Origin: an uncultured Verrucomicrobiales bacterium
GTDB taxonomy: Bacteria > Verrucomicrobiota > Verrucomicrobiia > Verrucomicrobiales > Akkermansiaceae
NCBI GenBank assembly: GCA_949373085.1
Contig: CASICJ010000027.1
Coordinates: 19,961-83,960 of the forward strand
Direction: 5' to 3'
DNA: 64,000 nt
The position numbers and the translations under genes are program-made. This document shows, one piece after another, positions 47,780 through 49,210 of this stretch (its first letter is position 1; the number at the start of each line of letters is the position of its first letter). The notes under the pieces were generated by a model. The model saw only the letters and a program-made list of their open reading frames with translations. It was not told the origin of the DNA and did not search any database.

Positions 47780-49210
47780 CTAAAGAATCTCAGGCGTTCC
47801 ATAGAGTGTGTAGCCAGTTGAATCTTCAATCCTGACGTCAAGGAGCTGTCCGGCCATTCTTTTTGCGTCACCATCAAAGATAACAATCTTGTTCTGGCTC
47901 GTTCGGCCACTAAGTCGCTCTTTATTCGTTTTACTTGGCCCTTCGCAGAGCACTTGTTGAACAGTTCCAATCAATTTTTCGTTTTTCGATGTAGTCAATT
48001 CCCCTTGGATTCGCAGTAAGATCTGATTGCGTTCCTCTTTCACCTTATCGCTCAGTTGCTCGTCCATTTCGGCGGCCGGAGTATCTTTCCTTTTTGAATA
48101 ACGGAAGATGAAGCTGTTATCGAAACCAATTCGTTTCATACAGGCTACCGTCTCCTCAAAATCTTCCTCGCTCTCCCCAGGAAACCCTACGATAATATCT
48201 GTGGTAATTGCGAGATCCGGACGCGCAGCCTGCATCTTCTCGCAGATCGTAAGAAACTTTTCGTTTTTATACGGTCGCCGCATCTTTTTGAGAATTCGAT
48301 CACTTCCGCTCTGCATCGGAAAGTGAATATGTGAACAAAGCTTCGGCAAATAGGTGAAAGCCTCTACCAAATCATCGCGGTAACCGATGGGATGCGGACT
48401 GGTAAAGCGGATCCTTTCGAGCCCCTCGATCTCGTGCACCGCTTCCAAAAGTTGTACGAATGGAGATTTACCATCCACCTTTGGAAACTCGGTCCGACCA
48501 TAAAGATTTACAATTTGCCCCAGCAAAGTGACCTCTCTCACACCCTTGCCTACGAGCTTCTCCACTTCACTAACAATATCGGGAATCGGTCTTCCCCTTT
48601 CCTTTCCTCGTGTATCGGGCACAATACAAAACGAACACCGCATGTTACACCCTTGCATAATACTAACGAAGGAAGTTGCCTGCTGACCCTCTCGAGGAAC
48701 ATGGTCTCTTATCGTATTTTGACTGCCCTCTTCCTCTTCAGTGTCGACCATCCTGGCAGAGATGATTCGATCCTGATTAATCTTAACAATCTCATCCTCG
48801 ACCCGTCCCGTGACCATTTCCACCCCGACCTCGTCCATACGTGTCTTCAGACGACGATTTAAGATACTGTCCACATAGTCGAAAACGCGGTGATACTTTT
48901 GCGTTCCCACAACTAAGTCAAGGTGAGGCACCCGGTCAAAAAGCTCTGATCCTCGGCTCTGGGCCATGCAACCCATGAAGCCATAGACAACATGATCTCG
49001 GCTTTCGCGGTATTTTCCCATCATCCCCATTTTGCCCAAAGCCTTTTGCTCCGCTTGATCGCGGACACTACAGGTATTGACCAGGATCGCATCAGCATCC
49101 TGTTCTTTGGGGGTGAGAGTGTAACCTCGCTCGGCAAACGTCTGAGCAACCTGCTCAGAATCCCGCTCGTTCATCTGTCACCCGTAGGTTTTAATAAAGA
49201 CCTTTGGCAT
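47780..49210 (-). CDS. miaB: tRNA-2-methylthio-N6-dimethylallyladenosine synthase MiaB, candidate selenoprotein with in-frame TGA (49178-49180) at the first Fe-S Cys
   Basis: Extended frame MPKVFIKTYG[TGA]QMNERDSEQVAQTFAERGYTLTPKEQDADAILVNTCSVRDQAEQKALG...SIMQGCNMRCSFCIVPDTRGKERGRP. Confidence 0.9.
49141..49159 (-). promoter_or_regulatory. bSECIS-like hairpin within miaB
   Basis: RNA UCUGAGC-AGGUU-GCUCAGA, 7 Watson-Crick pairs, 18 nt after the UGA; apical loop contains GGU. Confidence 0.65.

What the first reader, a model, noticed from the sequence alone, without database searches (positions are those of the whole stretch)
49141..49159. Perfect hairpin with AGGU loop at SECIS distance downstream of the miaB TGA
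Minus-strand RNA after UGA: CAGAUGAACGAGCGGGAU (18 nt) then UCUGAGC-AGGUU-GCUCAGA, 7 uninterrupted Watson-Crick pairs and a 5-nt loop starting 25 nt after UGA. Published bacterial SECIS descriptions call for a stem-loop shortly downstream of UGA with a G in the first loop positions. From memory, the E. coli fdhF SECIS loop is GC-AGGUCU-GC, so GC-AGGUU-GC is strikingly similar. It coincides with the miaB TGA, which makes a chance nonsense mutation much less attractive.
Basis: partly seen in the sequence, partly recalled or inferred. Interest (0 to 1): 0.85.

Follow-up and report, generated by a model that had tools for sequence, protein, structure and literature searches.

The report
Selenocysteine MiaB with bacterial SECIS hairpin
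A tRNA-modifying enzyme found in most bacteria, MiaB, carries selenocysteine instead of an iron-sulfur-binding cysteine in a large group of mostly marine Verrucomicrobiota, and the reported hairpin is the RNA signal that very probably tells the ribosome to read the stop codon UGA as selenocysteine; this form is absent from a 2026 catalogue of 119 prokaryotic selenoprotein families.

Summary
Just after an in-frame TGA (49178-49180, minus strand) lies a perfect hairpin, UCUGAGC-AGGUU-GCUCAGA. The TGA replaces the first auxiliary Fe-S cysteine of MiaB (MPKVFIKTYG-U-QMNERDSEQ).

The host genome encodes SelA, SelB, a UCA-anticodon tRNA-Sec and SelD, and that SelD itself has an in-frame UGA. The MiaB TGA is conserved in 24 of 25 congeners and in five other genera of the family, including the isolates Rubritalea marina and R. 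profundi, and in one genome of another family. SelA was found in 52 of 55 TGA-bearing genomes; eight SelA-negative relatives that I checked all have Cys. TGA interchanges only with TGC/TGT, with at least 6 (best tree 12) switches.

At least 6 of 7 stem pairs form in 55/55 distinct TGA genes but 12/61 Cys genes. The synonymous choices GAG and CAG in the hairpin are invariant in TGA genes, although Glu and Gln codons vary elsewhere in the same genes. So amino-acid constraint does not explain the stem.

I found no earlier report of Sec-MiaB; database entries start the protein 12 residues late. Sec insertion and the benefit of selenium remain untested.

The parts
47780..49210 (-). miaB CDS, 476 residues with UGA read as Sec (MPKVFIKTYGUQMNERDSEQ...); UPF0004, radical SAM and TRAM domains
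   Evidence: TIGR01574 464.9 bits, cut-off 355.3; PF00919, PF04055, PF01938; MiaB crystal structure 7mjv, E 5.6e-93
49178..49180 (-). In-frame TGA = Sec11, in place of the first of three auxiliary [4Fe-4S] cluster cysteines (U11-X33..35 spacing: U11, C47, C81)
   Evidence: aligned with Cys27 of 7mjv; CX35-36CX32-33C motif described in PMC5352715; TGA conserved
49141..49159 (-). bSECIS hairpin UCUGAGC-AGGUU-GCUCAGA (8 bp with GGU loop when A-U closes)
49153..49159 (-). 5' arm of the stem (Ser-Glu-Gln codons TCT GAG C)
49148..49152 (-). Loop AGGUU; G of CAG invariant in 55/55 TGA genes, 41/61 Cys genes
49141..49147 (-). 3' arm of the stem (Ala-Gln codons GCT CAG A)
49181..49210 (-). Ten codons MPKVFIKTYG upstream of the UGA, conserved as protein with many synonymous differences; Gly codon before UGA always GGA/GGG in TGA genes
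49070..49072 (-). Codon of Cys47, second auxiliary-cluster ligand (intact)
48968..48970 (-). Codon of Cys81, third auxiliary-cluster ligand (intact)
48626..48649 (-). CxxxCxxC radical SAM cluster motif (CNMRCSFC, intact)
49172..49174 (-). ATG two codons after the UGA, used as start in database entries (464-aa truncated protein)

Best explanation
miaB here encodes a selenoprotein. The UGA at codon 11 is read as selenocysteine by Sec-tRNA-Sec delivered by SelB, which binds the hairpin 18 nt downstream (a bacterial SECIS element embedded in the codons for DSEQVAQ). The Sec side chain takes the place of the first of three cysteines that hold the auxiliary [4Fe-4S] cluster of the methylthiotransferase, so one iron is expected to be bound by selenolate instead of thiolate. 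The enzyme then very likely does the usual MiaB reaction, i6A37 to ms2i6A37 in tRNA. Shown here: UGA position and conservation, exclusive Sec/Cys interchange, presence of the Sec machinery, SECIS-specific synonymous constraint. Inferred: actual Sec insertion, SelB binding, Fe-Se ligation, and unchanged reaction.
For: (1) Host genome has tRNA-Sec with anticodon UCA, SelB over cut-off and full length, SelA 483 bits, and SelD with an in-frame UGA in its own active-site motif CGGUASK. (2) TGA at this exact codon in 24/25 congeners with the N-terminus held, one further genus, and genera g8, g9, g28, g31, g32 of the family; in 60 Verrucomicrobiota contigs of GTDB genomes, including Rubritalea marina DSM 17716 and R. 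profundi SAORIC-165. (3) SelA in 52/55 TGA genomes; the three without are MAGs 72-86% complete. Eight SelA-negative relatives checked all have Cys. (4) Only TGA, TGC, TGT occur at this codon; 12 changes on the tree, at least 6 forced by well supported branches. (5) Stem of at least 6/7 pairs in 55/55 TGA genes v 12/61 Cys genes; GAG8 55/55 v 33/61, CAG9 55/55 v 41/61, GTT10 49/55 v 10/61, GCT11 46/55 v 3/61. (6) In TGA genes codons 8 and 9 have third-base entropy 0.0, whereas other Glu codons have 0.52-1.0 and other Gln codons 0.57-0.90; Val10 0.57 v 1.5-1.9 for other Val, Ala11 0.69 v 1.6-2.0 for other Ala. (7) The hairpin meets all four criteria of the published bSECIS model (loop 3-9 nt, stem 4-16 bp, G in first two loop positions, 16-37 nt spacing, MFE <= -7.5; PMC13188914). 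(8) Codons 1-10 upstream vary synonymously with conserved protein sequence, so the frame is translated through the UGA.
Against: No protein-level evidence. Not every TGA gene has an unbroken stem (16/55 have one mismatch, and 10 of 55 fall to an uninterrupted stem of at most 5 bp). TGA and Cys genes differ in base composition and are related, so Fisher p-values are not independent; the tree-corrected sign tests have too few pairs (6) to reach significance, though every pair goes the expected way or does not differ. Single covarying pair only. Cys genes in Sec-positive lineages retain part of the hairpin, as expected of recent reverts but also of amino-acid constraint.
Confidence: 0.94

Rival explanations
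1. The UGA is a true stop; MiaB is made from the ATG two codons later as a 464-residue protein that lacks the first cluster ligand, and the upstream piece is a leader.
For: Databases annotate exactly this form; ATG follows in all.
Against: The codons 5' of the UGA are conserved as protein with synonymous change. The UGA occurs in Sec-positive lineages and interchanges only with Cys codons. The ATG is the ordinary Met of the TYGCQMN motif present in Cys MiaB as well. A MiaB without one of three cluster cysteines would be expected to lose its auxiliary cluster (established mechanism, PMC5352715).
Confidence: 0.02
2. UGA is recoded as cysteine (or another residue) by a SelB-dependent tRNA-Sec-like tRNA-Cys or a near-cognate tRNA, not as selenocysteine.
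For: Such Cys-recoding tRNAs are known to me from the literature (not read here); sequence alone cannot tell Sec from Cys.
Against: SelA and SelD accompany the UGA gene; only one tRNA-Sec in the own genome passes the Rfam cut-off, with UCA anticodon.
Confidence: 0.03
3. Selenium switch: the UGA/SECIS is kept mainly to make MiaB synthesis depend on selenium supply, so that ms2i6A37 in tRNAs reading UNN codons follows selenium status; tRNA-Sec itself, whose anticodon loop UUUCAAA has A36-A37-A38, may be a substrate and close a feedback loop.
For: Single MiaB copy with no Cys spare in the own genome (one search finds only one close MiaB); tRNA-Sec loop TTTCAAA.
Against: No regulatory data; repeated reversion to Cys in Sec-positive genomes shows that the switch is dispensable.
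Confidence: 0.12
4. Sec is inserted, but the hairpin is incidental to the DSEQVAQ codons and another structure serves as SECIS.
For: A similar partial hairpin exists in 12/61 Cys genes; some TGA genes carry a mismatch.
Against: Synonymous sites of the hairpin are far more constrained than the rest of the gene; geometry fits the bSECIS model; loop resembles fdhF.
Confidence: 0.04
5. Chance nonsense mutation, pseudogene or sequencing error.
For: Five TGA hits outside Verrucomicrobiota occur in genomes without SelA and look like this.
Against: Conserved across at least seven genera including isolates; full-length open frame with purifying constraint.
Confidence: 0.005

Closest known systems
MiaB, tRNA (N6-isopentenyladenosine(37)-C2)-methylthiotransferase (TIGR01574)
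   Same: Above the curated cut-off, same three domains, other auxiliary-cluster and radical SAM cysteines intact, close to solved B. uniformis MiaB 7mjv
   Different: First auxiliary-cluster cysteine encoded by UGA with a downstream SECIS
Bacterial SECIS element, E. coli fdhF type
   Same: Hairpin downstream of UGA, loop GC-AGGU(U)-GC v GC-AGGUCU-GC, fits all published limits
   Different: Loop lies 25 nt after UGA against 17 nt in fdhF; stem lacks the fdhF lower-stem sequence; sequence fixed by a different protein
Known radical SAM selenoproteins (TIGR04167 rSAM_SeCys; TrsS NF045646)
   Same: Radical SAM enzyme with predicted Sec (PMC13188914)
   Different: Different families; neither is a methylthiotransferase and MiaB matched neither model at E 0.001
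Selenoproteins with Sec beside Fe-S clusters (e.g. HesB-like, Fe-S oxidoreductase-like GlpC, heterodisulfide reductase subunit A)
   Same: Sec replaces a Cys in an Fe-S protein (PMC13188914)
   Different: None is a tRNA-modifying enzyme; here the position is a known ligand of the auxiliary cluster that takes part in sulfur transfer

Membership tests
Selenoprotein gene (bacterial) | In-frame UGA aligned with a conserved Cys of homologues | tested here: met
   U11 aligns with Cys27 of 7mjv and with Cys of all non-TGA relatives
Selenoprotein gene (bacterial) | Homology continues on both sides of the UGA under selection | tested here: met
Selenoprotein gene (bacterial) | Host encodes SelA, SelB, SelC, SelD | tested here: met
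Selenoprotein gene (bacterial) | Selenium present in the protein | not testable with these tools
   Needs 75Se labelling or mass spectrometry
bSECIS element | Apical loop 3-9 nt with G in first two positions; stem 4-16 bp; 16-37 nt from UGA; MFE <= -7.5 kcal/mol (PMC13188914) | tested here: met
   loop GGU or AGGUU, 7-8 bp, 25-26 nt, -10.2 kcal/mol
bSECIS element | Structure conserved in Sec genes, relaxed in Cys genes | tested here: met
   tree-corrected pairs too few for significance
bSECIS element | Compensatory base changes | tested here: inconclusive
   One pair only (21-35: UA 20, CG 15, UG 14, CA 6 of 55); coding constraint fixes most others
bSECIS element | Binds SelB and drives UGA read-through | not testable with these tools
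   Needs reporter and binding assays
MiaB | UPF0004 + radical SAM + TRAM domains, over TIGR01574 cut-off | tested here: met
MiaB | Three ligands of the auxiliary cluster (CX35-36CX32-33C) and CxxxCxxC | tested here: met
   Met with U in the first place (U11-X35-C47-X33-C81)
MiaB | Methylthiolates i6A37 | not testable with these tools
   Inferred from family

The most novel reading that the evidence does not exclude
Sec11 is a selenolate ligand of the auxiliary [4Fe-4S] cluster that supplies the sulfur for methylthiolation, chosen because it makes the cluster easier to rebuild or more resistant to oxygen in aerobic marine bacteria; and because MiaB synthesis then needs tRNA-Sec, the ms2i6A37 state of UNN-reading tRNAs (perhaps tRNA-Sec itself) is coupled to selenium supply.
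Probability: 0.3. Interest if true: 0.85.

Novelty: new variant of a known kind. Interest (0 to 1): 0.75.

Why it matters
It would put selenium into one of the most widespread tRNA-modifying enzymes, at a ligand of the cluster that is consumed or rebuilt in catalysis. Because close relatives switch between Sec and Cys many times, the role of Se against S at an Fe-S ligand of a radical SAM methylthiotransferase becomes directly testable with natural pairs. It also links selenium metabolism with tRNA modification and corrects a gene start that is wrong in the databases for a large marine group.

Tried and rejected
Rfam scan found no known RNA family at the site. Five TGA hits outside Verrucomicrobiota (L102 Omnitrophota, L117 and L129 Elusimicrobia, L123 Hyphomicrobiales MAG, L137 Terriglobus MAG) were considered as independent Sec-MiaB and rejected: none of their genomes has SelA, three are truncated, and the two intact ones lack the hairpin (3-bp best stem). 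Tree-corrected sign tests were run but are underpowered (6 independent pairs). A longer fold (127 nt) gave no excess stability. The motif LLGQIVNLYG looked odd but is shared by Sec and Cys relatives. Esakova 2021 and Zhang 2020 on MiaB are not held, so ligand numbering rests on alignment and on PMC5352715. Structure prediction was not run: coordinates are not returned and homology is clear. Literature searches: MiaB + selenoprotein, selenocysteine + methylthiotransferase, Sec + the genera, Sec traits in Verrucomicrobia: no titles or abstracts pointing to a Sec-MiaB; the hits' full texts were not all read.

Full report
Observation. The minus strand of 47780-49210 is a 476-codon miaB gene whose eleventh codon is TGA. 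Among 2502 TGA triplets of the window only 12 are followed by so long a stem in SECIS geometry. Alone this would be suggestive; it is conservation that settles the matter.

The gene. The product scores 464.9 bits against NCBIfam TIGR01574 MiaB (cut-off 355.3), has UPF0004, radical SAM and TRAM domains, and its closest solved structure is Bacteroides uniformis MiaB. The UGA falls on the first of three cysteines of the CX35-36CX32-33C motif that binds the auxiliary cluster (motif from PMC5352715): U11, C47, C81. The other cluster cysteines are intact in all 105 full-length TGA reads examined (some are repeat fetches of one gene).

Selenocysteine machinery. The same genome holds tRNA-Sec with anticodon UCA, 5.7 kb before the window on the same contig, full-length SelB, SelA, and SelD with an in-frame UGA in CGGUASK, a known selenoprotein motif.

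Distribution. In the window's genus 24 of 25 genomes with this part of the gene have TGA, one has TGC. An order-wide survey shows TGA also in five further genera of the family, mixed with Cys. A pattern scan of 85,488 species genomes found 65 contigs with TGA in the motif: 60 are Verrucomicrobiota (mostly labelled Akkermansiaceae, Rubritalea or Roseibacillus; two are isolates), 5 are scattered elsewhere and lack SelA. One TGA gene (L144, the genome G054) lies in another family of the order and has a hairpin identical to the window's although the protein is distant. SelA was found in 52 of 55 TGA genomes; the rest are incomplete MAGs. Eleven Sec-positive genomes have a Cys MiaB; eight SelA-negative relatives whose codon I read all have Cys.

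Evolution. At this codon only TGA, TGC and TGT occur. On a tree of the gene without the hairpin region the Sec/Cys label changes 12 times, at least 6 on well supported branches. Cys genes in Sec-positive genera use TGT or TGC, often keep the hairpin, and keep GGA/GGG before the codon, as all TGA genes do (55/55 against 19/61 Cys genes). This suggests Sec to Cys reversion within the family; direction was not formally tested.

SECIS. In 55 distinct TGA genes at least 6 of 7 stem pairs form in every one, against 12 of 61 Cys genes; the mean energy of the 19-nt hairpin is -9.0 against -3.1 kcal/mol. The constraint is at synonymous sites: Glu8 is always GAG and Gln9 always CAG in the TGA genes, while Glu and Gln codons elsewhere in the same genes are mixed; Val10 and Ala11 are mostly GTT and GCT, which is unusual for Val and Ala in these genes. 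Since this is measured within the TGA genes it is not explained by base composition or by shared ancestry, which act on all columns alike. One pair (Ser7 third base with the second base of Gln/Arg12) shows UA, CG and UG forms. The element meets the published bSECIS limits (PMC13188914) and its loop resembles E. coli fdhF, verified.

Mechanism. Inferred: SelB with Sec-tRNA-Sec binds the hairpin and Sec enters at UGA; the selenolate binds one iron of the auxiliary cluster; methylthiolation of i6A37 follows as in other MiaB. Fe-S RNA-modifying enzymes can be inactivated by reactive oxygen (RlmN, PMC10336011), so protection or repair of the cluster in aerobic habitats is a plausible gain, but nothing here tests it. 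The tRNA-Sec anticodon loop UUUCAAA has the A36-A37-A38 sequence that MiaA/MiaB substrates carry (general knowledge), so a feedback is possible.

Known or new. A 2026 inventory of 119 prokaryotic selenoprotein families does not list MiaB or any methylthiotransferase (PMC13188914), nor does a 2022 review (PMC9312934). Full-text searches gave no report of it, but only open-licence papers are held. Close homologues in protein databases are 464-residue entries that begin after the UGA and are named as plain MiaB/RimO-type enzymes. I therefore rate it a new variant of a known kind: a new selenoprotein family with an ordinary bSECIS.

Noticed in passing
window 49181-49183 (codon before the UGA) and relatives: The Gly codon before the miaB UGA is GGA or GGG in 55/55 distinct TGA genes but GGT/GGC in 42/61 Cys genes; SelD's UGA in the same genome is also preceded by GGA. 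The reason for a purine at -1 is unknown.
   Followed up: partly
Database entries homologous to window 47780-49174: All 120 best protein hits are 464 aa and start after the UGA, so the gene start is mis-annotated across the group.
   Followed up: yes
L247/L246 (G000:C8:1589-2519): selD of the own genome has the Sec UGA and is also split between two frames near codon 82, probably an assembly error.
   Followed up: no
L129 and L117 (Elusimicrobia): A short MiaB-like N-terminal piece with TGA; in L129 it lies just upstream of an intact Cys-type MiaB start; looks like a partial duplication.
   Followed up: no
L123 (Hyphomicrobiales MAG), L137 (Terriglobus MAG): Otherwise intact MiaB with TGA at the same Cys but no SelA and no hairpin; likely nonsense mutation or MAG error.
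   Followed up: partly
L059 1501-1594 (G000:C27:14219-14308): tRNA-Sec lies on the same contig as miaB, 5.7 kb before the window; anticodon loop UUUCAAA.
   Followed up: partly
L144 (G054): A distant family member has a hairpin identical to the window's in a strongly diverged MiaB: either old conservation, convergence or transfer.
   Followed up: no
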